DNA of 61,954 bases. It comes from Bacteroidales bacterium (GTDB lineage: Bacteria; Bacteroidota; Bacteroidia; Bacteroidales; F082). Position 1 is the first letter of the stretch. Each line of letters starts with the position of its first letter. The notes under the pieces are model-generated. The model was given only the letters and a program-made list of their open reading frames with translations. It did not search any database and was not told where the DNA came from. The position numbers were made by a program, and so were the translations under genes. Positions 25,525 through 39,749 of the stretch are shown here, piece by piece. The stretch lies in NCBI GenBank assembly GCA_030683155.1, contig JAUXMV010000103.1:1-61954 (forward strand). Direction: 5' to 3'.

Positions 25525-26100
25525 ATGAAAAGTTACACATTAAAACTTATTACGCTGTTTTTGGTATTGTCTTTCAGTTTTTCAAGCTGCAAAAAAGACG
25601 AAGATCCGGAACCACAAAAGAACATTGCCAAACTTGGTGCACAGTCTAACGCAAGTTTCGGCGGTTTTTTGTCAGTTAGTACAAAAACCGTTTACAAACA
25701 AGCAGATGCTTTCGCCAATCAGGGAAAAATTGACATCCTTTGTTTTTATGAAGAAGCTGGTGGCAATAACATCGCTGTTGCAGCACCTGGAACAGGCATC
25801 AATGGGATCTTTACCGGAGATTCTTCCCCCGAAAACTGGACTACTACCAACCAAACTTATTTTACTGATCCGGCAACTGAGATAACTTCAGCACAATTCG
25901 ATCAGCTGAAAGATGGTGATGCTGTTATTCCGGGATATTTTGATGAAAGCATCACAAGCGGAAACAGAAAAAAGAAGGACATGAAAATTGGTGACATTTA
26001 TGCCTTCAAAACTGCCGATGGCATTTATGGCGTTTTCAAAGTTACTGATGTGGCTCAGGGTGCTTCAGGATTCATGGAATTTGAGTATAAGATAAAGTAA
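25525..26100 (+). CDS. Small lipoprotein paired with TonB receptor
   Basis: A 191-residue lipoprotein (FSSC, Cys22, followed by KKDEDPEP, a linker typical of surface-exposed Bacteroidota lipoproteins). The C-terminus (DIYAFKTADGIYGVFKVTD then SGFMEFEYKIK) is related to that of the next gene product, indicating a shared fold. It contains one non-lipid cysteine (CFYEE). I know no function; with a TonB-dependent receptor downstream it may bind the receptor's ligand at the cell surface, in the manner of HmuY, but no HmuY motif is certain. Confidence 0.8.
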   Translation: MKSYTLKLITLFLVLSFSFSSCKKDEDPEPQKNIAKLGAQSNASFGGFLSVSTKTVYKQADAFANQGKIDILCFYEEAGGNNIAVAAPGTGINGIFTGDSSPENWTTTNQTYFTDPATEITSAQFDQLKDGDAVIPGYFDESITSGNRKKKDMKIGDIYAFKTADGIYGVFKVTDVAQGASGFMEFEYKIK

Positions 26101-26119
26101 GTCAACCAATTGTATTAAG

Positions 26120-26154
26120 GTGCCGGAAAGCCGTTTCTTTTCCGGTACTTTTTT
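26120..26154 (+). terminator. Hairpin with T run between the two lipoproteins
   Basis: GTGCCGGAAA (26120-26129) pairs with TTTCCGGTAC (26139-26148, one G-T pair), followed by TTTTTT. It may end most transcripts after the first lipoprotein, so that it is made in excess of the receptor. Confidence 0.75.
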
Positions 26155-26180
26155 AATTCTTCCACCTTACTCAATGCGCC

Positions 26181-27104
26181 ATGACAAAATCTGCTATTCT
26201 TTCATGTAAAATCCTGCTTTTGTTCGCAGCTGTTGTTTTCTTTTCAGGATGTCAAAAAGACAGCAAGGAAATCATTCAACCAATCCTTTTATTAAAGTCG
26301 GGAGACTTTACAGCCGATGGTGCAATTATTCCCGTTGGAGGAAGGCTTTCTTTTGGTATTGTTGCAACAGAAGGCAGCGCTCCATTGACCAATCTAAGTG
26401 TCTTCAGAGAGGTTCATGGCAAGCGCATTACTGAACTTGACAAAGGAATTTACATTGAAAGTGGCGGACTTGATTTCATCTTTAACGCTGTGAAATCTAA
26501 TGCTGATATTGAAATATGGCACTTCAGAGTGTTTAATGCCAACAGAGATTCCGCAACAGTTAAACTGACGATTACACTTGGCGAAGGGTCAGCATACGGC
26601 CCTGTTTTCCATTTCACTTCGGTCAGGATTGGTATGCAAGAAAATACAATCTATCCGAAATATCTCGACTTGCATTCAGGAATTGCTTATTCATCGGAAA
26701 ACCTGGCCGGAAATGAAAACCTGATTGATTTCGTAGGTTTTGTTTATAAAACAGGTGGTGTTATGTCACCAACCCTTTGCTGCCCTGCATATTCCGGCAG
26801 CTCTTCTGTTACAGGCTTCTATCCTGAAATCGGAAGCTGGAGCGTAAGAAATTCTACCCTATATGATTACTATAGCTCAGACAACGGATTGATCAGCAAT
26901 GCTTTATTTGATAGCGCCACGAATGACAGTCTTTTGGTTACAGCCTTTAATCCGGGCAATGTAAGTGGCTTGTGCAAATATGGTTATGCAGGACGCGTGA
27001 TTCCTTTCAAAACTGAAGATGGCAGATATGGAATGATTAAAATGATCCATTCAGATACAACAACATCTGGATATATGGAAATGGAAATAAAAATTCAACA
27101 TTAA
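26181..27104 (+). CDS. Lipoprotein related to upstream lipoprotein, partner of TonB receptor
   Basis: A 307-residue lipoprotein (FSGC, Cys24). Its last ~40 residues (RVIPFKTEDGRYGMIKMIH, then SGYMEMEIKIQ) match the end of the preceding protein. The N-terminal half is longer, has an Ig-like character (DGAIIPVGGRLSFGI), and a CC pair occurs in SPTLCCPAYSGSS. It ends 6 bp before the TonB-dependent receptor and is surely cotranscribed with it. Likely a surface ligand-capturing protein; ligand unknown. Confidence 0.8.
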   Translation: MTKSAILSCKILLLFAAVVFFSGCQKDSKEIIQPILLLKSGDFTADGAIIPVGGRLSFGIVATEGSAPLTNLSVFREVHGKRITELDKGIYIESGGLDFIFNAVKSNADIEIWHFRVFNANRDSATVKLTITLGEGSAYGPVFHFTSVRIGMQENTIYPKYLDLHSGIAYSSENLAGNENLIDFVGFVYKTGGVMSPTLCCPAYSGSSSVTGFYPEIGSWSVRNSTLYDYYSSDNGLISNALFDSATNDSLLVTAFNPGNVSGLCKYGYAGRVIPFKTEDGRYGMIKMIHSDTTTSGYMEMEIKIQH

Positions 27105-27110
27105 GCTCAC

Positions 27111-29414
27111 ATGCGGATTTTAAGTTTAATAATTACAATCCTATGCCTCAGTTTCAACCTTTTGGCGCAAAACACACTTTCCGGAATTGTGGCAGAAGAA
27201 GCAACCGGACAGCCAATACCGGCTGCACATATTACCATAGGAAAACAAACGCTTGCAGCAAATGTATCAGGTGAATTCAATGTCTCAGACATTCGTGAGG
27301 ACAGTTTAAGAATTATTGTCAGCGCAATTGGGTTTATAAAACAGGAAATCACCGTTGTTTTCAAACATAATAACCAATTTCTAAAGATCAGCATGTCTGA
27401 AGACCAAAAACTGCTTGATGAGGTGATTGTTGTTGGAACGCGCACAGAGAACCTTATTATGGATATACCAGGCAGAATTGAAATGATTACGGCAGAAAAA
27501 CTCCGTTTGATCAACAACAATTCTGTTGATGAAGTAATTGCTTTCTTACCTGGAGTTCAGACATCACGCACTTTTGGATTGTTTTCCCATAAAGCAACTG
27601 TTTCGATGAGAGGTGTGAGTGGCAAGGAACAAGCACGGACGCTTGTGTTGCTGGATGGTATACCTGTGAATAAATCGGACGGAGGTTCTGTCAACTGGAA
27701 TCTCATTTCGACCGGAGATATAGAAAAAATTGAAGTGATGAAAGGGCCGGGTTCGTCTCTTTACGGAGGCAATGCAATGGGTGGGATCATTAACATTGTT
27801 TCAAAAAAACCGACAAAAAAACTTGAAGGAAACTTAACTACCTCTTATGGAACATATAATACAAGAGGAATAAAAGGAAGTATCGGAGGCGTTCCAAAAA
27901 TAGGGTACTACTGGGCTGCGTCAGGTTTGTACCGAAAAAGTGATGGATACATTGTGCAGTCTTATGCTGACAGAATCTCAAATCCACATATCATAAAATC
28001 CAACTTTGACGAAAAGGTTCTTAACATGAAAGCAGGCTATAGTCGTTCAGAAAAGTTTTCTGCCGGCATAAACTTCACTTTCTATGATGACAGAAGGGGA
28101 ACCGGAGAAAAAGTATATCAACCTTATGGAAATACAACCGACCACGACACCTACAGCATTAGAGCAAGTTTGTCGGGTAAAAACACCTACTGGAACTGGA
28201 ACGCTTCCTTGTTTTATATGGCAGAAAAATACAAGCGTGTAAGTGAATGGCTGAAAGACGATTACACCTGGTATGATGTTATTTCAAAGCGCGTTGACTA
28301 TGGATTACTTACAGGAGTACACCGGACATTCAGAAACCATACCATATCTGCAGGCTTTGATGTCAGAAAAGGTTCTGTGAATGCTTCCGATATCTATTTC
28401 ACTTCAACGGATCAAGTGGACAACAGAGGTAAAATGGATTTCTACGCTTTTTATATTCAGGACTTTTTTCGGCTTTTTAATAATAAAATCACTATCATTT
28501 CGGGACTGCGATATGATAATTCAACATTCTATCAGGGTGCATTTACAATCCTTCAGCCTTCATCTGAGACAAACTTTATGCAGGAATATCAGTTTTCAAA
28601 CCTGAGCAATCAGACCTGGGGCGCTGTAAGTCCACGTCTTTCAATTCAATACACTCCAGATGATGACCTTCGCATCTATGCCGGCTACAGCAAAGGATTC
28701 AGACCTTCAGTACTTGATGATCTTTGTCGTTCGGGACGAATACGCGGTGGTTTCAAAGTGGCAAACCCTCAGCTGAACCCTGAACATCTGCATAACCTGG
28801 AAATCGGCGGAGACTATAAACCTGCCGATTGGGCAAAAATCAGCATAAGTGCCTACAATTCTATTGGTCGCGATTTTCTATACTATGTTTCCACAGGCGA
28901 CAGCATCGACATGGGTTTTGGCAACCGGCCAATTATGATCAGAGCCAATATTTCAGATGTCAGGATATATGGCTTTGAAATGAATATGACATTATCACCG
29001 CTTGATTACCTGAATTTTTTTGGGGCTTATGCATGGAATGAATCTGTAATTTCGAATTATGAACCCATCAGTAAAGCCGAAAATACTGATCTGACAGGAA
29101 AATTTCTGACTGATGTGCCTGTACATTCTTTTTCTGCAGGGGCGCTGATACGGTCAGCTATAGCCGATTGCAGTATTACAGGACGATATGTCGGAGAAAT
29201 GTATATCAATGACCAGAATATTACAGATGATATTCTTCTTACAGAAAAATATCCTGCAGCGTTCACACTTGACATGAAAGTGCAACGTGAATTTTACAAA
29301 ATACTGACAGCCTCCCTCAGCATTCAGAATCTGCTTGATAAAAAAATCTATGAGAGCAAAGGTGCGGTCGGACCGGGAAGGTTTATTATGCTTGATCTGG
29401 GAGTTAAATTTTAA
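27111..29414 (+). CDS. TonB-dependent outer-membrane receptor
   Basis: A 767-residue receptor. After a signal peptide comes a carboxypeptidase-regulatory-like domain (LSGIVAEEATGQPIPAAHITI), then a plug domain (VIVVGTRTENLIMDIPGRIE through MKGPGSSLYGGNAMGGIINI, about 105-225) and a 22-strand barrel ending in an aromatic residue (LGVKF). The plug is of the siderophore/cobalamin/heme type rather than the SusC polysaccharide type, and no SusD is adjacent. Ligand is not deducible; the two preceding lipoproteins are probable accessory binders. Confidence 0.93.
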   Translation: MRILSLIITILCLSFNLLAQNTLSGIVAEEATGQPIPAAHITIGKQTLAANVSGEFNVSDIREDSLRIIVSAIGFIKQEITVVFKHNNQFLKISMSEDQKLLDEVIVVGTRTENLIMDIPGRIEMITAEKLRLINNNSVDEVIAFLPGVQTSRTFGLFSHKATVSMRGVSGKEQARTLVLLDGIPVNKSDGGSVNWNLISTGDIEKIEVMKGPGSSLYGGNAMGGIINIVSKKPTKKLEGNLTTSYGTYNTRGIKGSIGGVPKIGYYWAASGLYRKSDGYIVQSYADRISNPHIIKSNFDEKVLNMKAGYSRSEKFSAGINFTFYDDRRGTGEKVYQPYGNTTDHDTYSIRASLSGKNTYWNWNASLFYMAEKYKRVSEWLKDDYTWYDVISKRVDYGLLTGVHRTFRNHTISAGFDVRKGSVNASDIYFTSTDQVDNRGKMDFYAFYIQDFFRLFNNKITIISGLRYDNSTFYQGAFTILQPSSETNFMQEYQFSNLSNQTWGAVSPRLSIQYTPDDDLRIYAGYSKGFRPSVLDDLCRSGRIRGGFKVANPQLNPEHLHNLEIGGDYKPADWAKISISAYNSIGRDFLYYVSTGDSIDMGFGNRPIMIRANISDVRIYGFEMNMTLSPLDYLNFFGAYAWNESVISNYEPISKAENTDLTGKFLTDVPVHSFSAGALIRSAIADCSITGRYVGEMYINDQNITDDILLTEKYPAAFTLDMKVQREFYKILTASLSIQNLLDKKIYESKGAVGPGRFIMLDLGVKF

Positions 29415-29536: not shown

Positions 29537-29566
29537 TTGACAGTTAGTGATTATTAACTAACTTTG
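29537..29566 (+). promoter_or_regulatory. tetR promoter with operator 1
   Basis: TTGAC at 29538-29542 and TAACTTTG at 29559-29566 form a Bacteroidota-type promoter. Between and overlapping them is a perfect inverted repeat, AGTTAGT (29542-29548) and ACTAACT (29557-29563) with an 8-bp centre, 22 bp in all, a normal TetR operator size. Binding here would block polymerase, giving autoregulation. Confidence 0.78.
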
Positions 29567-29586
29567 CCGCATCAAATCTTGAAACA

Positions 29587-30186
29587 ATGCTAACAGATCG
29601 TCAACTTGAAATAATTCACACTTCGATAAAATTGATTTCTTCAAAAGGAATTCAGGGATTAACGATGAAAAACCTGTCGAAAGAAATTGGAATTTCTGAA
29701 CCGGCTATTTATCGTCATTACGAGAATAAAATTGAAATTTTAATCAGCATTCTTGATTATTTCAGCACTACAACACAAATGATTTTTGTTTCTGAAGTTC
29801 AAAAAACAGGATCTTCCTTGGATAAAATTCAACGGATTTTTGACAATCATTTCAAAGTTTTTTCCGAAACGCCATCGCTTGTAGCTGTAATTTTTTCTGA
29901 AGAAATCTTTCGAAGTGAGCCTTTGCTTGCAAAAAAAGTGAAAGAAATTATGGAAAGAAACAGCAGGGCCATTCAAGCGATTCTGGAAGAAGGAAAGCAA
30001 AATGGTGAAATTGATCAGAATCACAATGTTCAGCATCTTGCAATTATCATCATGGGTTCTCTGAGACTGCTGATAAAGCAATGGCAAATGGCTGATTTTG
30101 CGTTTGATCTGCAATCAAAAGGGATAGGATTTTTTAAGACCTTGAAACAGCTTGTCGGAGCAAAGATAAGCAATGAAATAGATTGA
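29587..30186 (+). CDS. TetR/AcrR-family repressor
   Basis: A 199-residue regulator. The N-terminal helix-turn-helix is clear at about 24-47 (GLTMKNLSKEIGISEPAIYRHYENK). The C-terminal ligand domain is not specific to a known inducer class. It sits first, before a cupin gene and an MMPL transporter operon, and its own operator is repeated before the transporter gene, so it most likely represses that operon until a lipid-like or hydrophobic inducer appears. Confidence 0.93.
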   Translation: MLTDRQLEIIHTSIKLISSKGIQGLTMKNLSKEIGISEPAIYRHYENKIEILISILDYFSTTTQMIFVSEVQKTGSSLDKIQRIFDNHFKVFSETPSLVAVIFSEEIFRSEPLLAKKVKEIMERNSRAIQAILEEGKQNGEIDQNHNVQHLAIIIMGSLRLLIKQWQMADFAFDLQSKGIGFFKTLKQLVGAKISNEID

Positions 30187-30230
30187 AAGTCTTAATAATG
30201 AGCATCATAAATCATAAAATATTATAGAAA

Positions 30231-30569
30231 ATGAAAATTACAGACTGGAAACAACAAGAAATCAAGCAAACTCCGCACAAAGTGGATGTACGTCAGCTTT
30301 ATGACAAAACTGATGCACAGGCTGTGCATATTTTGCTTCAACCCGGCGAACAACTGAAACCTCATATCACTCCGGTGGATGTGTTTTTCTTTATTCTTGA
30401 AGGAACACCTTCCGTGCAAATAGGTAATGAAATCAGTGTCGTGCAGGAAAACAATCTGGTTGAAAGCCCAAAAGATATTGTTCACTGTCTGTTTAATCAC
30501 TCGGAAAGACAAGCAAGAATTTTGGTGGTTAAAACACCAAAACCTATATCAAATGCCAGATTATTATAA
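30231..30569 (+). CDS. Small cupin-domain protein
   Basis: A 112-residue single-domain cupin (QPGEQLKPHITPVDVFFFILEG for the first motif, SPKDIVHCLFNHSE for the second). The usual HxH of motif 1 is reduced to one histidine, so metal binding may be weak. It may be a small sensor or enzyme. It lies 44 bp after tetR and is followed by a terminator, so it is probably cotranscribed with tetR rather than with the transporter. Confidence 0.82.
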   Translation: MKITDWKQQEIKQTPHKVDVRQLYDKTDAQAVHILLQPGEQLKPHITPVDVFFFILEGTPSVQIGNEISVVQENNLVESPKDIVHCLFNHSERQARILVVKTPKPISNARLL

Positions 30570-30589
30570 TCTTTAATTCAAATCATTTC

Positions 30590-30614
30590 AGGCATGTATG
30601 ACATGTCTTTTTTT
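30590..30614 (+). terminator. Intrinsic terminator after the cupin gene
   Basis: AGGCATGT (30590-30597) pairs with ACATGTCT (30601-30608, one G-T pair) around a 3-nt loop, followed by seven T. It separates the tetR-cupin transcript from the transporter operon. Confidence 0.72.
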
Positions 30615-30624
30615 AGAACACATT

Positions 30625-30646
30625 AGTTAGTTAACATTAACAAACA
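30625..30646 (+). promoter_or_regulatory. TetR operator 2 before the MMPL operon
   Basis: A 22-bp stretch that matches operator 1 at 29542-29563 in 17 of 22 positions: the left arm AGTTAGT is identical and the right half (ATTAACAAACA) is a degenerate copy of ATTAACTAACT. It lies 8 bp before the transporter ATG, behind its own terminator-isolated region, the place expected for a target operator. Confidence 0.65.
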
Positions 30647-30653
30647 TCAAACT

Positions 30654-32948
30654 ATGACACAAAAATCAATGAAAAACCTGGCCTGGGTGGTCATTATTGC
30701 TATCATGGCTGTGAGCATTTTCTTCGTTTTCGAAATGGTTAAAAACGCCAGCATGGAAACCGATCTTGACGAATATATGCCTAAGGAGCATCCCGCCTTT
30801 GTATACAGCGATCAGGCCGAGAAGTGGTTTAACATCAAGGATGGTATTTTGATAGCAATCGAGAATGTAGATGGCATATACAATCAGGCTACTTTGCAAA
30901 AAATCAAAGACATTACTGAGGGCCTGCAAGATATGCCGGAATTTGAAGCTGCCGATATCGTTTCACTTTACACAGCCGACAATATAATTGGTAATGAAGA
31001 AGGTCTTGATGTTAAGTCTTTTTACAAAAATGTTCCTCAAACAGCGGAGAAACTAAAAGAGTTGCAGTTAAATGTAGCTTCGAATGAGATGGTTCAAGGA
31101 AGGTTGGTCTCCGATAACAATCAAGTTGCACTTGTTGTTGCTGCGCTGAACGACAGCGTTTTTTCGATGGAATTCTATGACAAAATCCTTGCTTTTGCCG
31201 ATTCTTTCAACGGCCCTGAGGAAATTTATGTTGCTGGAGTACCCATTGTGGAAGGCACGATGGCTTATCTGGGTCCGAAGGACATGAAAACGATGGTTCC
31301 AATTGTGATTCTGGTGATTGTTATCATTTTGTATGCTGTGCTGCGAAGCGTGAGAAACACTCTTGCCACTTTGTTTGTGGTATTGTTTAGTACCATTTGG
31401 GCATTTGGACTTATGTCGCTCACAGGAATTCCAATTTATGCCGTAACGATTATGATTCCGGTGATGCTTATTGCCATTGGAGTGGCTGATGGCATCCATC
31501 TTTACAACCATCTTGATCTTTTTATGCAGGAAAATGAGGGCGTTAATAAGATTGAAGCCATCAAAGACATGCTGAAAAACATGTGGAAACCTGTTGTGAT
31601 GACATCCGTTACTACTGCTGTTGGTTTCATTTCGCTGCTTACCTCAGAAGTCCTTCCAATCAAGTATTTTGGACTTTTTACGGCTTTCGGTGTTATGGCT
31701 GCGATGGTTTTCTCATTGGTTTTTATTCCGGCAGCCATCATGGTTTTTGGTATTAAAAAGAAGAAAATCATACATAAAGATGACAACAATCACGCAAGTT
31801 TTGCATACAGTTTTGCGGAAAAAACGCTTAAACATAAAGTGCTTGTCATTTCTGTTACAGCAGTTTTGATTTTTGTGTCCATTTTTGGAATTGGGAAAGT
31901 CTGGATCAACTCCAGTTTTCTTGAAAACTTTGAACGCAACAGTGATATCGTTCGCACAGATGCTTTTGTCAACAAGCATTTTGGAGGCACCAGCATGATC
32001 AATGTCATACTTGAATCGGAAAATGATGGTGTAATGTTGCAGCATGATGTGCAAAAAATGATGGTACAAATGCAGACATCTGTTGAAAATGTTGAGACAG
32101 TTGGAAGCTCATTTTCGATTGCAGATTATATCAAAAGGATGAATAAAGTCATGAATGCTGATGAAGAGGCTTTCAATGTCATTCCGGATGAAAACGACTT
32201 AATAGCGCAGTACTTGCTGCTTTATGAAATGTCAGGTGATCCTGAAAACTTATGGAAAGTGATAGATTATGACTATAAAAAAGCAAATATCACGTTTCAA
32301 CTCAAAAGCGATAATTCCAAAGAACTTAACAAAGCCATTGAAGCGATTGAGGTTTTTAGAAAGCCATTTGAAGAAAAAGGTATCAGCATCAATTATGCTG
32401 GCAGCGGCTACAAAGCACTTGTATTTACCGGTCTTATTCTAACAGGCCAGATTAAAAGTCTTATTTTGTCAATAATCATCATTATACTGCTGCTTTCTTT
32501 AATGTTTAAAAAGCTCAGCATTGGACTGATTGGCTCAATTCCGGTGGTTTTGACTGCCATCATAAGTTTTGGGTTGATGGGTCTGTTGAATATTCCGCTG
32601 AGTACAACAACGGCACTTATTTCGAGTATTGCCATTGGTATCGGCATCGATTATGCGGTGCATTTTATTGACCGTTACCGCATCAATGCCCTTGAAACCG
32701 GCGACAAGCTGGCAACAATAAGAGAGACAATGCATCACTCCGGAAGAGCGATTGCCTTTAATGCAGTGGTTGTTATTGTTGGTTTTTTGGTTTTGCTATT
32801 CTCCGTTTTTCCTCCAAACCGTTCACTCGGAGCATTGGTTTCCATGAACATGTTTATCAGTTTCCTGGCAACTGTAACCATCATGTATCTGGTACTTTAC
32901 AAATCCAATGTGTTCTTTAATAAAAAGAATAAAAGGACTGACATTTAA
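30654..32948 (+). CDS. MMPL/RND-superfamily transporter
   Basis: A 764-residue inner-membrane transporter with two repeated halves, each with one helix, a large periplasmic domain and five clustered helices. The conserved helix-4-type motifs are GVADGIHLYNHLDLF in the first half and GIGIDYAVHFIDRYR in the second, as in MMPL/SSD-type exporters that move lipids or other hydrophobic compounds using the proton gradient. No membrane-fusion or TolC protein is encoded nearby; instead three envelope proteins follow directly, including a LolA-like carrier. Substrate is most likely a lipid. Confidence 0.92.
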   Translation: MTQKSMKNLAWVVIIAIMAVSIFFVFEMVKNASMETDLDEYMPKEHPAFVYSDQAEKWFNIKDGILIAIENVDGIYNQATLQKIKDITEGLQDMPEFEAADIVSLYTADNIIGNEEGLDVKSFYKNVPQTAEKLKELQLNVASNEMVQGRLVSDNNQVALVVAALNDSVFSMEFYDKILAFADSFNGPEEIYVAGVPIVEGTMAYLGPKDMKTMVPIVILVIVIILYAVLRSVRNTLATLFVVLFSTIWAFGLMSLTGIPIYAVTIMIPVMLIAIGVADGIHLYNHLDLFMQENEGVNKIEAIKDMLKNMWKPVVMTSVTTAVGFISLLTSEVLPIKYFGLFTAFGVMAAMVFSLVFIPAAIMVFGIKKKKIIHKDDNNHASFAYSFAEKTLKHKVLVISVTAVLIFVSIFGIGKVWINSSFLENFERNSDIVRTDAFVNKHFGGTSMINVILESENDGVMLQHDVQKMMVQMQTSVENVETVGSSFSIADYIKRMNKVMNADEEAFNVIPDENDLIAQYLLLYEMSGDPENLWKVIDYDYKKANITFQLKSDNSKELNKAIEAIEVFRKPFEEKGISINYAGSGYKALVFTGLILTGQIKSLILSIIIIILLLSLMFKKLSIGLIGSIPVVLTAIISFGLMGLLNIPLSTTTALISSIAIGIGIDYAVHFIDRYRINALETGDKLATIRETMHHSGRAIAFNAVVVIVGFLVLLFSVFPPNRSLGALVSMNMFISFLATVTIMYLVLYKSNVFFNKKNKRTDI

Positions 32949-32970
32949 TCAGTTAAAAATCAGATCTGCC

Positions 32971-33900
32971 ATGAAACACTCTTTGAAACACTGCGGGATA
33001 TTGATTTTGACAATTTTAATGGGTCTTGATACAATGGCTCAGAATGAATTGCCGGAAAGTGATTTTTTCAGTTCGGTCAGAGCCAATCAGACAGATAGTT
33101 ATGTAACATTTTTGCAAGGAATCGGAAATCTTGAACCGCTTGTTTTTGAAGCAATGGTCGCACCCACATTTTTGTTGAGAACCAACAGCAGCGCTCAATA
33201 CGGAGCGACAATCTCAACGGCAATCCGACTTAGGATGTATGCTGAAGAGTCAGTTCCTGTCAGATCGCCAAGCTATATGCCAAACATCACCTTCTATTAC
33301 AACTTACCAAACTTTTATCCGGGTAATGATGGCTCCAACTATGTCTTTTTACTTTTGGGGCATCATTCCAACGGACAGGACGGAGATTTTTTTCTGGAGG
33401 ATGGCAGCTACAATACCAAAACAGGAAATTTTTCAACAAATTACATGGAGCTTGGATTGTTCTTTAACCAAAAAATCGTTCCTTTTTCGAATACCTCCGA
33501 ATACTTTAAAATAGCGCTTGAGTGGCATCCAAAAATAGACCTGAGTCCCGGCCTGGAAGGCAGGTATGGGTTTCTGCGCTTACACAACAGCTTAAATATT
33601 AACAGGTTCACAATAGGAAGGGTGAAATCAATTTTTAAAAATGTAAACCGGATCTACAACGATGTGCCACGGGTGCAAACGAGTATCGAAACAACCTGGA
33701 TTTTTGGTGACAGAAGTGGCGCAAAAGCCTTTGATTTTAAAGAACGCTTTAACCTTAACCTGAAAATTGCTTACCGTCCTCAAGTGCTCAAAGATGTTAG
33801 TTTTTTTGCGCGCTTTTACACGGGTGAAGATTATTACAATATGTTTTTTTACCGCAGAATTAACATACTTCAAATAGGACTTCAAGCTTTTGCATTTTAA
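32971..33900 (+). CDS. Outer-membrane phospholipase A-like beta-barrel
   Basis: A 309-residue protein with a signal peptide (ending about TMAQ, residue 24) and barrel-like strands ending in an aromatic residue. Residues His131-x-Ser133 in GHHSNGQDGD, followed by Asn157 in FSTNYMEL, resemble the active site of outer-membrane phospholipase A (HxSNG, then SxN), with a longer loop between Ser and Asn. Overall similarity is otherwise not obvious, so activity is uncertain. Start at 32971 follows the transporter stop by 22 bp and gives a proper signal peptide. It belongs to the TetR-controlled transporter operon. Confidence 0.65.
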   Translation: MKHSLKHCGILILTILMGLDTMAQNELPESDFFSSVRANQTDSYVTFLQGIGNLEPLVFEAMVAPTFLLRTNSSAQYGATISTAIRLRMYAEESVPVRSPSYMPNITFYYNLPNFYPGNDGSNYVFLLLGHHSNGQDGDFFLEDGSYNTKTGNFSTNYMELGLFFNQKIVPFSNTSEYFKIALEWHPKIDLSPGLEGRYGFLRLHNSLNINRFTIGRVKSIFKNVNRIYNDVPRVQTSIETTWIFGDRSGAKAFDFKERFNLNLKIAYRPQVLKDVSFFARFYTGEDYYNMFFYRRINILQIGLQAFAF

Positions 33901-33989
33901 CTTTAGCATGTCTTAATAATTCAAGAACAGCACATTAAAAAAAATTAAATAATTCATTTATAAATTAACAAATTAAAATCTCTATAAAA

Positions 33990-34769
33990 ATGAAAACAAT
34001 TCAAATGCTCTTTGCAGCAATAATCTTTTTTAGCCTTGCCGGATTCACAACAGTGAATGCTCAAATGGATGGGCAGAAAATTATGGAAGCAGTGTATAAC
34101 AATCCTTCCGGAGATGATGTACAAGGCGAACTGAAAATGATTCTCAGAAACAAACAAGGCGATGAAAGAGTACGTCAGCTAAAGCAATTCATCAAAGTTG
34201 ATGCTCAAACGGAGAAAAAAATCATGTTTTTCCTGTCGCCTGCCGATGTTAAGGGAACCTCTTTTATGAGTTGGAGCTATGTTGATGGCCGAGATGACGA
34301 CCAATGGATTTATTTGCCGGCTTTGAAACGCACAAAACGAATTTCAAGCGACAGCAAAGCAGATTATTTCATGGGTTCAGATTTCACATATGATGATCTT
34401 GGCGACCGTCATCCATCGGAAGACCATCACCTATTGCTTCGTGAAGAAACAGTGGACAAACACGCATGCTATGTGGTTGAAAGCAAGCCAAAAGAAGCTG
34501 ATTATATGTATTCCAAAACAATAACCTGGGTTATGAAAGACAATTTTCTTGGCTTGAAAAGAGACTTCTATGACGAAAAAGGCAATTTGTTAAAAACACT
34601 TACAATCACAAAGTTTGAAAAGATAAACGGGTTTTGGACGATTCTCGAAACCGAAATGCATAACGTACAAAAGAGTCATACTACAAAAATGATTTTTAGT
34701 GATGTTAAAATAAATCAGGGAGTTCCTGAAAGTAAATTCACAGAACGGAGTATGACATTGGGTCAATAA
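33990..34769 (+). CDS. LolA-like outer-membrane lipoprotein-sorting protein
   Basis: A 259-residue periplasmic protein with a signal peptide (ending VNAQ, residue 25) and the half-barrel pattern of the 'outer membrane lipoprotein-sorting protein' family: KKIMFFLSPADVKGTSFMSW, DDQWIYLPALKRTKRISSDSK, FMGSDFTYDDLGDR. The family is regularly encoded beside MMPL-type transporters and is thought to carry lipid-like cargo across the periplasm. Here it sits between an OMPLA-like barrel and a DUF1302-like barrel. Confidence 0.9.
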   Translation: MKTIQMLFAAIIFFSLAGFTTVNAQMDGQKIMEAVYNNPSGDDVQGELKMILRNKQGDERVRQLKQFIKVDAQTEKKIMFFLSPADVKGTSFMSWSYVDGRDDDQWIYLPALKRTKRISSDSKADYFMGSDFTYDDLGDRHPSEDHHLLLREETVDKHACYVVESKPKEADYMYSKTITWVMKDNFLGLKRDFYDEKGNLLKTLTITKFEKINGFWTILETEMHNVQKSHTTKMIFSDVKINQGVPESKFTERSMTLGQ

Positions 34770-34883
34770 TTTTAAAAACATAATGCAGATGAAGGTGAAT
34801 CGATATCAGGGAAGCCGGTTTCAGAATTTATTTTGGTTTTCTTTAAGGTCACCTTCTCTGCATTGCCTAATAAATATGCAAAA

Positions 34884-36131
34884 ATGAAAAGTAAACTTAC
34901 AAGCATTCTCCTTATTTTGCTGTCGATCGCAATGCAAATAAGTGTAAATGCACAGTCTGAAAACATCAGTTTTTCTGGCTATGTGCGCAATTATACGGGC
35001 GCTTTGACAAGCAGTCCGAATGATTTTACGATTGTCCAAAACACCTTTAACCTTAACATTGAAAAGCGAACCGATAAGATTGGGTTTAAAGTAAACCCCT
35101 TTTTGTACCACTATTTTGACAAGGAACTTGATCTGGGTTTGCGCGAAGCCTATGTGGACATGTATTTTAAAAATTTTGATTTGCGGGTTGGTCGTCAGCA
35201 GATTATTTGGGGAAAAGCTGAAGGTGTATTTATTACAGATGTGGTTTCTCCAAAAGATTTACGTGAGTTCCTTTTGCCCGACTTTGATGAAATCCGCATG
35301 GGTATCACTGCTTTTAAACTGAACTATTATCTTGGTAACAGCAGTATCGAAGCAGTATGGTCTCCTGTGTTCATTCCAACACAAATGCCAGAAAATGAAT
35401 CAATTTGGGCTCCAAAAATGATTTTCCCCATGTCGCCTGAATTTGATTATTCACATTCTGAAGTAAAACCGTCTCTCAAAAACAGCGAGCTTTTTGTGCG
35501 ATACGCTTCAATGGGCTCCAAAATAGATTTTGAACTCGTGGGCGGAACATTTTTTTACGATGACCCTGCCATGAACATTACCCGAACCATAGATCCATCA
35601 ACGATGCAACTTTCGGGTTTGATCGTAAAGCCAGAATATAATAGGGTCAACATGGCCGGAGGAAGTTTCAGTAAAGTGCTTGGTGGCTTTGTTCTTCGCG
35701 GTGAAGGCGCTTTTTACAATGGAAGATATTTTCAAACCAGCGATCCAATGGTCAAGGGCTCGGTAATTGAAAAGGACAATCTGCATTATATGGCAGGGCT
35801 GGATTACACCCTCGGCGGCGTGAAGCTCAGCTCACAGATTGTACAGGAATACATTATCGATTATGAAGAAGGCATCAGCAACCAGGAATTTGAAAACACG
35901 ATGACTTTTTTAGCCAAAAAGGACTACTTAAGGGAGAAGCTTTGGCTGGAATTATTTGCCTATGTTGGTTTAAATAATGGCGATGCACTCGTGAGGCCAA
36001 AAGTTAGTTATGCCTTTGCCGATGGTTTTGATGTGCAGGCTGGAGCCAATCTGTTTTTTGGTGATAACGGACGATTTGGTCAATATGATAAAAATGATAT
36101 GGTGTATCTGAAACTGAAATATGGTTTCTGA
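34884..36131 (+). CDS. DUF1302-like outer-membrane beta-barrel protein
   Basis: A 415-residue protein with signal peptide (ending VNAQ, about residue 24) and a barrel ending in LKYGF. The stretch DLRVGRQQIIWGKAEGVFITDVVSPKD is the most recognisable part and resembles DUF1302-type porins, which are found with MMPL and LolA-like/DUF1329 genes in other phyla. The ATG at 34884 is chosen over 34833 because it directly starts the signal peptide. Last gene of the operon; it probably forms the outer-membrane end of the pathway. Confidence 0.78.
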   Translation: MKSKLTSILLILLSIAMQISVNAQSENISFSGYVRNYTGALTSSPNDFTIVQNTFNLNIEKRTDKIGFKVNPFLYHYFDKELDLGLREAYVDMYFKNFDLRVGRQQIIWGKAEGVFITDVVSPKDLREFLLPDFDEIRMGITAFKLNYYLGNSSIEAVWSPVFIPTQMPENESIWAPKMIFPMSPEFDYSHSEVKPSLKNSELFVRYASMGSKIDFELVGGTFFYDDPAMNITRTIDPSTMQLSGLIVKPEYNRVNMAGGSFSKVLGGFVLRGEGAFYNGRYFQTSDPMVKGSVIEKDNLHYMAGLDYTLGGVKLSSQIVQEYIIDYEEGISNQEFENTMTFLAKKDYLREKLWLELFAYVGLNNGDALVRPKVSYAFADGFDVQAGANLFFGDNGRFGQYDKNDMVYLKLKYGF

Positions 36132-36193
36132 AATTTCAAAAAGATGACTTTTGGCGTCAAATCATAACAAATCAAAAAATGCAGATTTGTAAA

Positions 36194-36234
36194 GACGAAA
36201 GTTAGCTTCAAATTTTTTTATGCTAACTTTTGTC
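36194..36234 (+). terminator. Terminator hairpin after the transporter operon
   Basis: GACGAAAGTTAGC (36194-36206) pairs with GCTAACTTTTGTC (36222-36234, one G-T pair), followed by a short T-rich stretch. It lies about 60 bp past the stop at 36131. Confidence 0.65.
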
Positions 36235-36327
36235 CTTTTCGCATTCTTTGAATTTCAAGGATTATTACATCATCAAAAATTTGACCTTTACGGTCATTTT
36301 ATTTCTTTTTGAAGCAAAATATTGTTG

Positions 36328-37211: not shown

Positions 37212-38072
37212 TCAGACGGCTGCTTCAGTTATGCCGTCCAAGGCTAAAATATCTTCAGCTTCCATTATAAATTTCACAGCTTCGATATTCTCAAGAATAT
37301 GTGCTTCACTTGTCATTTTTGGAATAGCGAGCATGAGTGGTTTGCTTATCAGCCAGTTGAGGGCAATCTGAAAGGCTGTTTTGTTGTATTTCGTTGTAAG
37401 CGCTTGCACAAGTGGATGTGTCAATGTGCTGGAATCACCTTTTAAGACCGGCCGCCACGCAGTGATGCTGATACCGTTTTTGTGGCAGTAGGGAATGACT
37501 TCAGATTCAATATTTTGGTTGTAGCTGGCTTTGTTGCGCGTAAAAAGATTGTACTCCACCTGATTTGTGATGATGGGTGCTTCGGTGTAGAAAGCTACTT
37601 CGTGCAGAAGCTTCACAGGAAAATTGCTCAGTCCGAAATAGCGGATAGTCTTATCTTCCAGCAGTTTATTAATGGCACTCATGGTTTGACTTAAAGGCAC
37701 CTTTGCGTTAGGCCAGTGCAGCAAAAAGAGGTCGATCTGATCTATGCCCAGTCTTTTACGGCTTGCTGCAGCAGAGCGTAAAACATCGTTGAACTGAAGT
37801 GTGTCGCCTGAAACTTTTGTGGTGATAAAAAGTTTGTTTCGTTCATGGTTTTTTATTGCTTCTCCAACAAGTTTTTCGGCATGGCCTGCACCATAGATGG
37901 CAGCGGTATCAATGTGTTTGATTCCGTTTCCAATGGCAAAGTCAATGGCATGAAGCCATTTTTTATCTTCGCTTGTGTCGGCTTTCTGACGGCCACCCAT
38001 TTCCCATGTGCCAAGGCCAAGCACAGGTAGGGTCAGTTGATTTTGAATAACAATTTCCGGGATAATGCTCAT
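37212..38072 (-). CDS. Aldo/keto reductase
   Basis: A 286-residue NAD(P)H-dependent reductase. Catalytic residues are visible: Asp and Tyr in HIDTAAIYGAGHAE, Lys in FITTKVSG, His in FLLHWPNAK; the cofactor end is LAIPKMTSEAHILENIEA. Its ATG overlaps the stop of the class II aldolase gene (ATGA), so the two are translated together. In that context it probably reduces the aldehyde released by the aldolase (acetaldehyde, lactaldehyde or methylthioacetaldehyde), an inference. A truncated paralogue is present at 25.0 kb. Confidence 0.93.
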   Translation of the reverse strand: MSIIPEIVIQNQLTLPVLGLGTWEMGGRQKADTSEDKKWLHAIDFAIGNGIKHIDTAAIYGAGHAEKLVGEAIKNHERNKLFITTKVSGDTLQFNDVLRSAAASRKRLGIDQIDLFLLHWPNAKVPLSQTMSAINKLLEDKTIRYFGLSNFPVKLLHEVAFYTEAPIITNQVEYNLFTRNKASYNQNIESEVIPYCHKNGISITAWRPVLKGDSSTLTHPLVQALTTKYNKTAFQIALNWLISKPLMLAIPKMTSEAHILENIEAVKFIMEAEDILALDGITEAAV

Positions 38073-38698
38073 CTGTTCATTAATTTATCTATGGCTTCAA
38101 GCTGTAATTTACTAAGTGGATTTATTGCTCCCAGGTTATTGACAATGAGGTTTACTTTGGCACAGTTTTCAAGTACTTCGATGCGGTCGAATGCTTCCAA
38201 AAGGCTTTTGCCGACGGCTAAAATTCCATGATTTACCATCATAACCACCTCAGAATTTTTCGCTGCCTCTGCCACCTGCTGCGCCAGTTGTGGAGTACCC
38301 ATCAAAGCATAGGGTGCCAGAGCAATATCTCCCAATATAGCCCATGATTCGCCCATGAGTGTGGTGTCGATTTTCTTCTGTGCCACTGCAAAGGCAGTCG
38401 CTGTGGGCGGATGTGCATGCACAATGGCCATCACATCGGGACGGGCGGCATAAACGGCAAGATGCATGCCGGTTTCCATGCTGAGCTTAAGTTCAGGGTT
38501 CTGATTGATTCCATTCATATCCAGAATCCCTATTTCCCTGGCTTTCATGCGTCCTTTGTCAGTCTGCGAAGGTGTGACAAGGATATAATCTCCCGCCCTG
38601 ACACTGATATTTCCACCTGAAGTTGTTGTCAGGCCTTGCTTGTAGAGCCGGCGCATGAAGTAGGCAATAGCTTTTTTATGTGTCTTTAATTCATTCAT
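38069..38698 (-). CDS. Class II aldolase/adducin family protein (fuculose-phosphate aldolase-like)
   Basis: A 209-residue zinc-dependent aldolase of the L-fuculose-1-phosphate/5-methylthioribulose family. Recognisable are TSGGNISVRAG (phosphate site), METGMHLAVYAARPDVMAIVHAHPPTA (catalytic acid and two zinc histidines) and VMMVNHGILAVGK (third histidine). Directly after mtnA (4 bp gap), so its likely substrate is 5-deoxyribulose-1-phosphate or 5-methylthioribulose-1-phosphate, split into DHAP and an aldehyde, or in the MtnB case dehydrated. mtnC/D-type genes are absent here, which favours the aldolase (DHAP shunt) reading. Confidence 0.88.
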   Translation of the reverse strand: MNELKTHKKAIAYFMRRLYKQGLTTTSGGNISVRAGDYILVTPSQTDKGRMKAREIGILDMNGINQNPELKLSMETGMHLAVYAARPDVMAIVHAHPPTATAFAVAQKKIDTTLMGESWAILGDIALAPYALMGTPQLAQQVAEAAKNSEVVMMVNHGILAVGKSLLEAFDRIEVLENCAKVNLIVNNLGAINPLSKLQLEAIDKLMNR

Positions 38699-38702
38699 AT
38701 CA

Positions 38703-39749
38703 TCAGTTTTTCAACAAGGCCGCGATAGACTGATAATGTGCTTTTACAACGCCTTTTTCGGTGATAATACCGCTGATCAATTTTGCCGGCGTCACATCAA
38801 ATGCGGGATTATAAGCATCTGAACCCGGCGAGGCCACACGAATTCTGACCATATTTCCGTTGGTATCGATGCCGTCCTGGTAAAGCACTTCATCCTGATT
38901 CCGGTGTTCGATCACAATGTCTTTTCCGCTTTTACAATCCTTGTCGAAAGTCGATGTTGGAGCTGCCACATAAAATGGGATTCCGTAATGACTGGCAAGA
39001 ATGGCCCTGTCGAGTGTGCCTATTTTATTGGCTACATCACCGTTTCGGGCAATGCGGTCAGCTCCAACGATCACTAAATCAATCTTTCCTTCAGCCATAA
39101 GACCGGCAGCGGCATTGTCAGGGATAATCAGATGAGGAATATTTTCGTTGTTCAATTCCCATGCTGTGAGCCTTGCTCCCTGTCCGCGCGGGCGTGTTTC
39201 ATCCACATAAACGAACACATTCTTTTTTTGATCACGGGCAGTGTAAATGGGAGACAAGGCAGTGCCGTAATCAACAAAAGCAAGCCAGCCTGCGTTGCAA
39301 TGGGTAAGAATTCTGGATTTGCTGCGAATCAACTGACTTCCATATAGTCCGATTGATCGCGTGTCTTCAGCATCTTTGCGGGCAACTTCCACTGCTTCTT
39401 CCATGGCTTTTTCCCGTGAAATTTTGCCGGCTTCAAAAACTCGTTCAACGGCATAAAACAAATTTCGTGCTGTTGGTCTCGTTGATTCGATGTCCTGACG
39501 AGCCTCTTTTAAGAAACCAATATAATTCTCTTCCGGGGCTTCCATACAAGCCTGTGCCATAGCATACCCAGCTGCAGCACCAATGGCTCCCGCACCTCTT
39601 ACCACCATTTCTGTAATGGCCATGCAGGTGTCCCAATAGGTTTTACATTCATGAATATGGAAGTTGAAAGGAAGCATGTTTTGATGAATCATCATCACTG
39701 AACTGCCTTCCATCCAGATGGTTTGATAAGATTTTCCGTTTACAAGCAT
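38703..39749 (-). CDS. mtnA: S-methyl-5-thioribose-1-phosphate isomerase
   Basis: A 348-residue isomerase converting methylthioribose-1-phosphate (or 5-deoxyribose-1-phosphate) to the ribulose form. The active-site Cys is in RILTHCNAGWLAFVDYGT, ETRPRGQGARLTAWEL follows, and the catalytic Asp is in VGADRIARNGDVANKIGT. eIF2B-alpha-like relatives lack this combination. It is 29 bp after an M20 peptidase gene and 4 bp before a class II aldolase gene, forming a four-gene salvage-type operon. Confidence 0.95.
   Translation of the reverse strand: MLVNGKSYQTIWMEGSSVMMIHQNMLPFNFHIHECKTYWDTCMAITEMVVRGAGAIGAAAGYAMAQACMEAPEENYIGFLKEARQDIESTRPTARNLFYAVERVFEAGKISREKAMEEAVEVARKDAEDTRSIGLYGSQLIRSKSRILTHCNAGWLAFVDYGTALSPIYTARDQKKNVFVYVDETRPRGQGARLTAWELNNENIPHLIIPDNAAAGLMAEGKIDLVIVGADRIARNGDVANKIGTLDRAILASHYGIPFYVAAPTSTFDKDCKSGKDIVIEHRNQDEVLYQDGIDTNGNMVRIRVASPGSDAYNPAFDVTPAKLISGIITEKGVVKAHYQSIAALLKN

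What the first reader, a model, noticed from the sequence alone, without database searches (positions are those of the whole stretch)
29537..36234. TetR-controlled lipid-type envelope system: MMPL transporter, OMPLA-like barrel, LolA-like carrier and DUF1302-like barrel
Seen: a TetR gene and cupin gene, a terminator, then four contiguous genes spanning inner membrane, periplasm and outer membrane. Known: LolA-like proteins and DUF1302-type barrels accompany MMPL transporters in several phyla. Inference: the operon moves a lipid or hydrophobic compound between membranes, and the extra phospholipase-like barrel could process or retrieve it at the outer membrane, making it a possible repair or remodelling pathway. 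I do not know this exact gene set as a described system.
Basis: partly seen in the sequence, partly recalled or inferred. Interest (0 to 1): 0.78.

Follow-up and report, generated by a model that had tools for sequence, protein, structure and literature searches.

The report
Efflux operon with outer-membrane phospholipase-like barrel
A bacterium carries a switch-controlled set of genes that probably pumps a greasy compound out of the cell, together with an outer-membrane barrel resembling a phospholipase; relatives attach the same barrel to two other kinds of export pump, which hints that pumping and membrane repair are turned on together.

Summary
TetR, cupin, a hairpin with a T-tail, then MMPL/HAE3 permease, OMPLA-like barrel, LolA-like carrier and DUF1302 barrel lie at 29587-36131. 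The three-gene core (MMPL-LolA-DUF1302) is a known kind: it resembles AmeABCD, a monoterpene efflux system of Castellaniella. The fourth gene is the new part. Its model is a barrel of about 12 strands with OMPLA as best PDB match; the OMPLA His-x-Ser-Asn-Gly motif and Ca-site serine are invariant in 30 of 30 aligned sequences. In 247 genomes of the order, 14 of 36 orthologous MMPL loci carry it. Over 101 distinct loci it lies near MMPL/LolA (37), AcrB tripartite pumps (34) or ABC-2/TolC pumps (15, mostly Flavobacteriia); 15 show no exporter. The tree rejects a single origin of the MMPL-context barrels. A palindrome (GTTAGT-N8-ACTAAC) on the TetR promoter and before MMPL recurs in relatives. 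The TetR is closest to Bacillus FadR, an acyl-CoA sensor (recalled). Best reading: a TetR-switched exporter of a hydrophobic compound plus an outer-membrane phospholipase that repairs or reports membrane damage. Substrate, direction, catalysis and ligand are inferred, not shown.

The parts
29537..29566 (+). promoter of TetR: TTG-N19-TAnnTTTG (Bacteroidota-type -33/-7, motif recalled)
   Evidence: sequence; in relatives the -7 motif lies in register with the operator in 16 of 22 MMPL-context TetR regions that have a site with up to 3 mismatches
29543..29562 (.). operator 1, GTTAGTGATTATTAACTAAC
   Evidence: 0 mismatches; upstream of TetR in 18 of 30 MMPL-context relatives with up to 2 of 12 mismatches
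29587..30186 (+). TetR/FadR-like regulator
   Evidence: PF00440, PF08359; closest solved structure B. subtilis FadR 3whb (species recalled)
30231..30569 (+). small cupin
   Evidence: PF07883; recurs in 16 of 36 MMPL-context and 10 of 30 AcrB-context loci
30590..30614 (+). terminator-like hairpin and T-run
30626..30645 (.). operator 2, GTTAGTTAACATTAACAAAC, 8 bases before the MMPL start
   Evidence: 1 mismatch; the form GTTAGTTAAYRTTAACAAAC stands before MMPL in 16 of 36 relatives, 0-9 bases from the start; up to 2 of 12 mismatches in 25 of 34
30654..32948 (+). MMPL/HAE3-type RND permease, 764 aa
   Evidence: PF03176; TIGR00921 best NCBIfam match but below its cut-off
32971..33900 (+). OMPLA-like outer-membrane barrel of about 12 strands, 309 aa
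33990..34769 (+). LolA-like periplasmic carrier, 259 aa
   Evidence: PF17131 and DUF1329 matches; 9tp6, E 6e-58, which is P. gingivalis LolA3
34884..36131 (+). DUF1302-type porin-like barrel, 415 aa
   Evidence: PF06980; model resembles OmpC, OccK8, AlgE
36194..36234 (+). long inverted repeat after the last gene, possible terminator
   Evidence: fold z -3.99 for 36150-36240

Best explanation
It is a TetR-switched exporter of a hydrophobic or amphipathic, membrane-damaging compound. The HAE3/MMPL pump extracts the compound from the inner membrane with the proton gradient, the LolA-like protein carries it across the periplasm in its hydrophobic groove, and the DUF1302 barrel lets it out. The OMPLA-like barrel is an outer-membrane phospholipase that is switched on with the pump: it removes phospholipids that the compound has brought to the outer leaflet, and so repairs the barrier. 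The FadR-like TetR covers its own promoter and a second operator before MMPL, and is probably released by an acyl-CoA or a similar acyl ligand. Shown by sequence: gene set, conserved operator, OMPLA motif and predicted fold, repeated association with exporters. Inferred: direction, substrate, catalysis, ligand, and the repair role.
For: Core make-up equals that of AmeABCD, whose deletion lowers monoterpene tolerance and raises net Nile Red influx in CCCP-treated cells (PMC6394551, passages). By the labels the OMPLA-like barrel lies near AcrB pumps in 34 of 101 distinct loci, near ABC-2 pumps in 15 and near MMPL/LolA in 37; the pump is upstream on the same strand in 33 of 34, 14 of 15 and 36 of 37, and within 2.5 kb in 31, 13 and 33 (Pfam of examples L101, L082, L133). 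The MMPL-context barrels are not one clade (AU p 9.5e-8; 6 context changes on the careful tree, at least 4 forced by starred branches for the MMPL label). TetRs of seven AcrB loci are 40-54% identical to the window's, as near as many MMPL-context TetRs. Operator with up to 2 of 12 mismatches: 18 of 30 TetR and 25 of 34 MMPL upstream regions, against 9 of 840 other ORFs; in the own genome no other site has fewer than 2 mismatches. OMPLA is the best PDB match; His, Ser, Asn, Gly and the Ca-site Ser align with PldA and are invariant in 30 of 30 aligned. 3whb (FadR) is the nearest solved TetR.
Against: I know of no experiment on any member. 22 of 36 MMPL loci in the order sample lack the barrel, so the pump can do without it. 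The Asn of the OMPLA triad could not be placed: N148 and N157 are both invariant and the MAFFT alignment breaks there. OMPLA's Arg147 is Gln here. A profile search with the family found no PDB chain at E 1, the hhalign probability is only 13.7%, and fold scores are moderate (TM 0.49-0.55 by query; other barrels close behind). No TAnnTTTG is seen between cupin and MMPL (by eye). In AcrB loci only 4 of 20 TetR regions have the operator with up to 2 mismatches (14 of 20 with up to 3, against 47 of 840). Sought without the motif, the palindrome is the best inverted repeat in only 10 of 30 TetR and 16 of 33 MMPL regions. AcrB and ABC pumps are common, and I ran no control for how often they lie near an unrelated gene. 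The compound and TetR ligand are unknown; NCBIfam FadR scores 73 against a cut-off of 200. 15 of 101 loci show no exporter.
Confidence: 0.6

Rival explanations
1. A lipid-export pathway for an endogenous envelope lipid or pigment: MMPL and LolA deliver a native lipid to the outer membrane and the OMPLA-like barrel trims or matures it there.
For: MMPL and HpnN relatives move lipids (families matched; function recalled); F. johnsoniae LolA2/LolB2 sit in a flexirubin operon (PMC11885536, passages); LolA-type grooves bind acyl chains (recalled).
Against: No lipid biosynthesis family among the 14 proteins of window 25.5-41.0 kb that were scanned; the neighbourhoods of relatives were searched only for chosen families, so this is weak. 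The barrel goes at least as often with AcrB and ABC-2 pumps together as with MMPL; local TetR control suggests an inducible function.
Confidence: 0.2
2. The barrel is a catalytically dead or non-phospholipase OMPLA relative, for instance a small hydrophobic channel or another esterase that acts on the exported compound.
For: Pfam PLA1 below cut-off; Asn of the triad not placed; Arg147 replaced by Gln.
Against: HHSNG, the Ca-site Ser and the prolines P96 and P104 are invariant among relatives that are only 28-53% identical to the window's barrel, which a dead barrel would not need.
Confidence: 0.25
3. A lipid-scavenging system: the phospholipase frees fatty acids outside, the DUF1302 barrel and LolA-like protein bring them in, and the FadR-like TetR answers to their CoA esters.
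For: FadR-like TetR; in E. coli the fatty acids made by PldA do become acyl-CoA signals (PMC5874903 abstract).
Against: No beta-oxidation family among the 14 proteins of 25.5-41.0 kb that were scanned; operator with fewer than 2 mismatches unique to this locus in the genome; AcrB and ABC-2/TolC partners are exporter types.
Confidence: 0.1

Closest known systems
AmeABCD of Castellaniella defragrans (HAE3 RND efflux of apolar monoterpenes)
   Same: HAE3/MMPL permease, LolA-superfamily periplasmic protein (DUF1329; the window's LolA matches DUF1329 at 1.8e-16) and DUF1302 outer-membrane protein in one gene cassette (PMC6394551 passages).
   Different: Ame has AmeC (COG4447) and, as described, no OMPLA-like barrel; the window has TetR, cupin, operator and OMPLA-like barrel but no AmeC-like gene; PF17131 instead of DUF1329 is the best match of the carrier.
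OMPLA/PldA of E. coli
   Same: Barrel of about 12 strands, EESxPxR...YxP and HxSNG motifs aligned, Ca-site Ser106 equivalent.
   Different: 11-13% identity in the fold alignments, Arg147 to Gln, longer loop before the next strand; pldA in the fetched K-12 region lies between yigI and recQ, not with a pump.
LolA3 of Porphyromonas gingivalis (9TP6) and the Lol system
   Same: Closest solved relative of the carrier (199.6 bits); LolA/LolB-like fold with hydrophobic groove (PMC13103446 passages).
   Different: LolA3 hardly binds LolB and lacks the LolA Arg and LolB Leu; its gene context is not given in the passages read.
FadR of Bacillus subtilis (TetR family; acyl-CoA response recalled)
   Same: Nearest solved structure to the TetR family profile (3whb, E 2e-22), PF08359 C-terminal domain.
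   Different: Operator copies with fewer than 2 mismatches in one locus only, rather than a fatty-acid regulon.

Membership tests
HAE3/MMPL RND transporters | PF03176 domains over the curated cut-off | tested here: met
   147.7 bits, cut-off 20.5
HAE3/MMPL RND transporters | NCBIfam HAE3 subfamily TIGR00921 over cut-off | tested here: not met
   244.2 bits, cut-off 351.9; still the best NCBIfam match
AmeABCD-type HAE3 efflux cassette | HAE3 permease + LolA-superfamily + DUF1302 in one operon | tested here: met
   30 of 36 orthologous loci have DUF1302 and 33 of 36 LolA nearby
AmeABCD-type HAE3 efflux cassette | AmeC (COG4447) subunit | tested here: not met
   apart from the barrel and LolA no further gene between MMPL and DUF1302 in the window
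AmeABCD-type HAE3 efflux cassette | efflux of hydrophobic compounds measured | not testable with these tools
   bench assay needed
OMPLA (PF02253 phospholipase A1) | Pfam PLA1 over gathering score | tested here: not met
   17.8 bits against 27; the own-genome family search at E 0.1 misses even this barrel
OMPLA (PF02253 phospholipase A1) | 12-strand outer-membrane barrel of OMPLA fold | tested here: met
   model pLDDT 83.5, about 12 barrel strands; OMPLA 1ild first, E 7.8e-5, moderate TM-scores
OMPLA (PF02253 phospholipase A1) | catalytic His142-x-Ser144 and Ca-site Ser106 (roles recalled) | tested here: met
   aligned by hhalign and MAFFT; invariant in 30 of 30
OMPLA (PF02253 phospholipase A1) | catalytic Asn156 | tested here: inconclusive
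   N148 and N157 both invariant; alignment fails there
OMPLA (PF02253 phospholipase A1) | Ca-dependent phospholipase activity on dimerisation | not testable with these tools
   bench assay needed
Lol lipoprotein-sorting system | LolCDE partner and LolB receptor at the locus | tested here: not met
   partner is an RND permease, no ABC transporter or LolB family among the proteins of the locus
FadR-type TetR | NCBIfam FadR equivalog NF053878 over cut-off | tested here: not met
   73.3 bits against 200, though the best match
FadR-type TetR | acyl-CoA as ligand | not testable with these tools
   binding assay needed

The most novel reading that the evidence does not exclude
Bacteroidota possess a general repair-with-efflux module: an OMPLA-type phospholipase recruited several times into operons of three unrelated exporter types under TetR control, in which the enzyme both clears misplaced phospholipids and makes the acyl signal (fatty acid, then acyl-CoA) that releases a FadR-like repressor, so that outer-membrane damage itself switches on the pump and the repair enzyme in a positive loop.
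Probability: 0.2. Interest if true: 0.82.

Novelty: new variant of a known kind. Interest (0 to 1): 0.6.

Why it matters
Efflux pumps and outer-membrane lipid repair are mostly treated as separate defences. A phospholipase-like barrel that is found with HAE3, HAE1 (AcrB) and ABC-2 exporters would link them genetically and would give a function to a barrel family that matches no NCBIfam model in the window and three relatives. It offers a simple test: does damage to the outer membrane, through released acyl chains, induce the pump? It also suggests that LolA3-type proteins, studied with lipoprotein sorting in mind, may serve RND efflux.

Tried and rejected
Bacteroides BT_2792-2795 was my first guess for a known equivalent; the paper calls it a bile-salt tolerance efflux pump operon (PMC10994844 passages); I did not compare sequences. 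PMC10197588 held nothing relevant in the passage seen. A PF02253 enzyme elsewhere in the genome: none at E 0.1, but the same search misses the window's barrel, so divergent ones are not excluded. A sequence-profile search of the PDB with the barrel family found nothing. BFVD gave no match at E 0.001. The idea that the barrel belongs to LolA-type transport alone was dropped when AcrB and ABC-2 contexts appeared. The idea that the barrel entered MMPL operons once was rejected, after L121 was relabelled from AcrB to ABC-2 (its ABC-2 pump is upstream, its AcrB 10.5 kb downstream), L126 set aside (AcrB and DUF1302 fragments), and long branches L044, L096, L122 left out. L145 bears the ABC-2 label although the pump lies 10.8 kb downstream. 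Papers on the four-gene set or on a phospholipase in efflux operons: in searches none of the listed papers looks like it by title and start of abstract; at most the best 20 papers were listed per search (of up to 6,652), most subscription papers are not in the library, and bioRxiv is held only in part through PMC.

Rows dropped: alignment A1 holds the window and 29 of the 31 other matches (partial G013 and weak G151 left out). The tally leaves out two MMPL fragments of 54-55% identity (G076 contig 23, G233 contig 82). Of the 297 relatives found only the best 80 were returned, so the context counts lean to near relatives. Of 111 loci (L039-L149), 9 with identical barrel ends were merged and L069 has no barrel ORF, leaving 101. 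The first tree has 92 of 102 rows (L059-L067 as distant and L068 as short left out).
Full report
WHAT IS THERE. The locus runs from a promoter at 29537 to about 36234 on the + strand: TetR, cupin, hairpin with T-run, MMPL permease, a barrel, LolA-like protein, DUF1302 barrel. Pfam places five of the six proteins above cut-off; the barrel reaches only 17.8 of 27 bits for PLA1. Signal peptides are visible by eye at the N-termini of barrel, LolA-like protein and DUF1302 protein. The assembly is a 4.74 Mb genome in 111 contigs; the nearest named relatives of the barrel are Bacteroidetes metagenome assemblies (77% identity, L070).

CONSERVATION. In 247 genomes drawn from the same order, 36 loci encode a close MMPL orthologue (599 bits or more; two fragments left out). 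Within 12 kb on the same strand LolA lies in 33 of 36, DUF1302 in 30 of 36, the OMPLA-like barrel in 14 of 36. 29 of 247 genomes have a barrel match anywhere, one of them partial (G013) and one marginal (G151, 19 bits). Gene order varies: MMPL-barrel-LolA-DUF1302 in 6, MMPL-LolA-barrel-DUF1302 in 6, MMPL-LolA-DUF1302-barrel in 2. Fifteen genomes have both MMPL orthologue and barrel; in 14 they are in one cluster, and in the fifteenth (G099) the barrel sits beside an AcrB gene on a 3.9 kb contig. So the core is constant and the barrel is an optional but specific accessory. The own genome has a second MMPL-LolA-DUF1302 set on contig 58 (28, 31 and 24% identity), and only one barrel match.

THE BARREL IS FOUND WITH EXPORTERS. 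A scan of one genome for each of 84,980 species gave 297 relatives, of which the best 80 were returned. With the loci these are 111 loci, 101 after merging. Labels by neighbours within 11 kb on the same strand: 37 MMPL/LolA, 34 AcrB, 15 ABC-2, 15 none. The pump is upstream of the barrel in 36 of 37, 33 of 34 and 14 of 15, within 2.5 kb in 33, 31 and 13. Two labels are doubtful: L121 (AcrB far downstream, ABC-2 upstream) and L145 (ABC-2 10.8 kb downstream). Pfam of single examples confirms OEP (TolC), HlyD-type adaptor and ACR_tran in L101 and L082 and OEP, HlyD, two ABC ATPases and two ABC-2 permeases in L133; the others were assigned by similarity to proteins of these loci. Of the 15 'none' loci five begin close upstream of the barrel (L073, L075, L122, L131, L136), nine are distant paralogues (L059-L067) and one (L146) has TetR, cupin and DUF1302 fragments. 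I ran no control for how often AcrB or ABC pumps lie near unrelated genes. On the careful tree (89 rows, long branches left out) the context changes 6 times where 2 would suffice, starred branches force at least 4 for the MMPL label, and holding the MMPL-context barrels together is rejected (AU p 9.5e-8). ABC-2-context barrels form one group (99/97). The first tree, relabelled, gave 5 changes.

REGULATION. A palindrome GTTAGT-N8-ACTAAC occurs at 29543-29562 and, with one mismatch, at 30626-30645; at up to 3 mismatches the window has 10 strand-wise matches against 3.8 expected. In the 4.74 Mb genome no other site has fewer than two mismatches to the 14 fixed bases searched; the reversed control pattern is commoner (176 against 13 matches at up to 2), so it is the near-perfect copies that count, not the number. 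I saw the repeat by eye in the window, then sought inverted repeats upstream of the genes of relatives without giving the motif: the best repeat is this palindrome in 10 of 30 TetR and 16 of 33 MMPL regions of MMPL loci and 3 of 16 TetR regions of AcrB loci. With the motif, counting 12 fixed bases: up to 2 mismatches in 18 of 30 TetR and 25 of 34 MMPL regions of MMPL loci, 4 of 20 TetR regions of AcrB loci (14 of 20 at up to 3), against 9 of 840 other ORFs (47 of 840 at up to 3) and 69 of 5050 random windows, which include the true sites. In 16 of 22 MMPL-context TetR sites the right half runs into TAnnTTTG, the Bacteroidota -7 element (recalled; background 6 per 10,000 positions), but in only 1 of 14 AcrB-context sites; in the window a TTG ends 19 bases before it. 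Binding would block that promoter. The MMPL-side copy has the form GTTAGTTAAYRTTAACAAAC in 16 of 36 relatives, 0-9 bases from the start codon; only 2 of 28 MMPL-side sites carry TAnnTTTG, so how that promoter works is open. The TetR family profile matches FadR (3whb) best among solved structures (E 2e-22), and TetRs of seven AcrB loci are 40-54% identical to the window's. The TetR of the ABC-2 loci is a different one (22-31 bits where it matched), and I did not look for operators there. Acyl-CoA as ligand of FadR is recalled; for this TetR it is inference.

IS THE BARREL AN OMPLA? The AlphaFold2 model (pLDDT 83.5, 30 sequences) has about 12 barrel strands (13 listed, two of them short). Eight of the 21 PDB matches at E 0.001 are E. 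coli or Salmonella OMPLA, with the first two places; TM 0.49-0.55 by query, 0.58-0.69 by target. hhalign against E. coli PldA (sequence) aligns 47 columns at E 0.002, probability only 13.7%, with EESxPxR, YxP and H-x-S-N-G in register; MAFFT gives the same pairs: S94 to Ser106, H131 to His142, S133 to Ser144, Q136 to Arg147. S94, P96, P104, H131, S133, N134 and G135 are invariant in 30 of 30 aligned. That Ser106 and Arg147 are Ca ligands and His142-Ser144-Asn156 the triad is recalled (the N156A structures are titled 'active site mutant'). The Asn is not settled: N148 and N157 are both invariant; N157 lies at the start of the next strand (155-166), where Asn156 lies in OMPLA (recalled). I call it an OMPLA-like probable phospholipase, not a proven member: the Pfam threshold test fails.

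THE OTHER PARTS. The LolA-like protein's best solved relative is P. gingivalis LolA3 (9TP6), which in the paper hardly binds LolB and is given a separate, unknown function (PMC13103446, passages). In the order sample, LolA relatives of similar score to 9TP6 sit next to MMPL and DUF1302 relatives (for example G083 contig 97 and G186 contig 75), which suggests that LolA3-type proteins serve RND efflux rather than lipoprotein sorting; I did not see the P. gingivalis locus. The DUF1302 model (pLDDT 85.2) resembles general porins by E-value and, by TM-score to the query among the 50 listed, OccK8 and AlgE (0.57-0.58), which fits an exit channel.

HOW IT MOST LIKELY WORKS. By analogy with AmeABCD (deletion lowers tolerance to monoterpenes; more net dye influx; PMC6394551, passages) the core exports a hydrophobic compound. 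The strongest new argument is comparative: the same barrel, with the same TetR and cupin families, is attached to AcrB/TolC tripartite pumps, and the barrel also to ABC-2/TolC pumps; what these share is export across the outer membrane, not lipid traffic by LolA. In E. coli PldA removes misplaced surface phospholipids and its fatty acids, as acyl-CoA, signal the damage (PMC5874903, abstract). A barrel of this type in an exporter operon would repair damage by the same compound. Whether its products also release the TetR is the boldest reading that the data leave open.

COMPARISON AND NOVELTY. Core: already known kind. Addition of the OMPLA-like barrel, its exporter contexts, and the shared operator: not seen in the listings of searches of the held open-access library. 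I therefore rate it a new variant of a known kind.

Noticed in passing
L111:7773-8615, L164:7485-8895, L158, L159, L160, L161, L162, L165: A calcineurin-like phosphoesterase followed at once by a ~200-220 aa protein (no Pfam match in the 7 ORFs scanned; the one read, P0001, looks like a small barrel) recurs, in some genomes inside the same MMPL or AcrB operons; the phosphoesterase lies near the barrel in 14 of 101 loci. A bile-induced B. thetaiotaomicron pair BT_0691-BT_0692 is described as outer membrane protein plus calcineurin phosphohydrolase (PMC10994844 legend); homology not tested.
   Followed up: partly
G000 contig 58: 33450-37908: Second MMPL-LolA-DUF1302 set in the same genome, 24-31% identical, without OMPLA-like barrel.
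   Followed up: no
L133:10912-11754 and other Flavobacteriaceae loci: A 280 aa protein with ATP-cone and Mrr_cat matches follows the barrel in many ABC-2-type loci; unrelated in appearance to transport.
   Followed up: no
window 25525-29414: Two lipoprotein-like genes without Pfam match and a TonB-dependent receptor (best NCBIfam TonB-hemin, below cut-off) lie just upstream; perhaps a heme uptake locus.
   Followed up: no
window 37212-39749, - strand: Aldo/keto reductase, class II aldolase and IF-2B family (MtnA-like) protein in a row, perhaps a methylthioribose salvage set (pathway recalled).
   Followed up: no
L076, L089, L096: The set also appears in contigs assigned to Neomarinimicrobiota, Kiritimatiellae (contig ends within LolA) and Cloacimonadota MAGs; transfer or mis-binning.
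   Followed up: no
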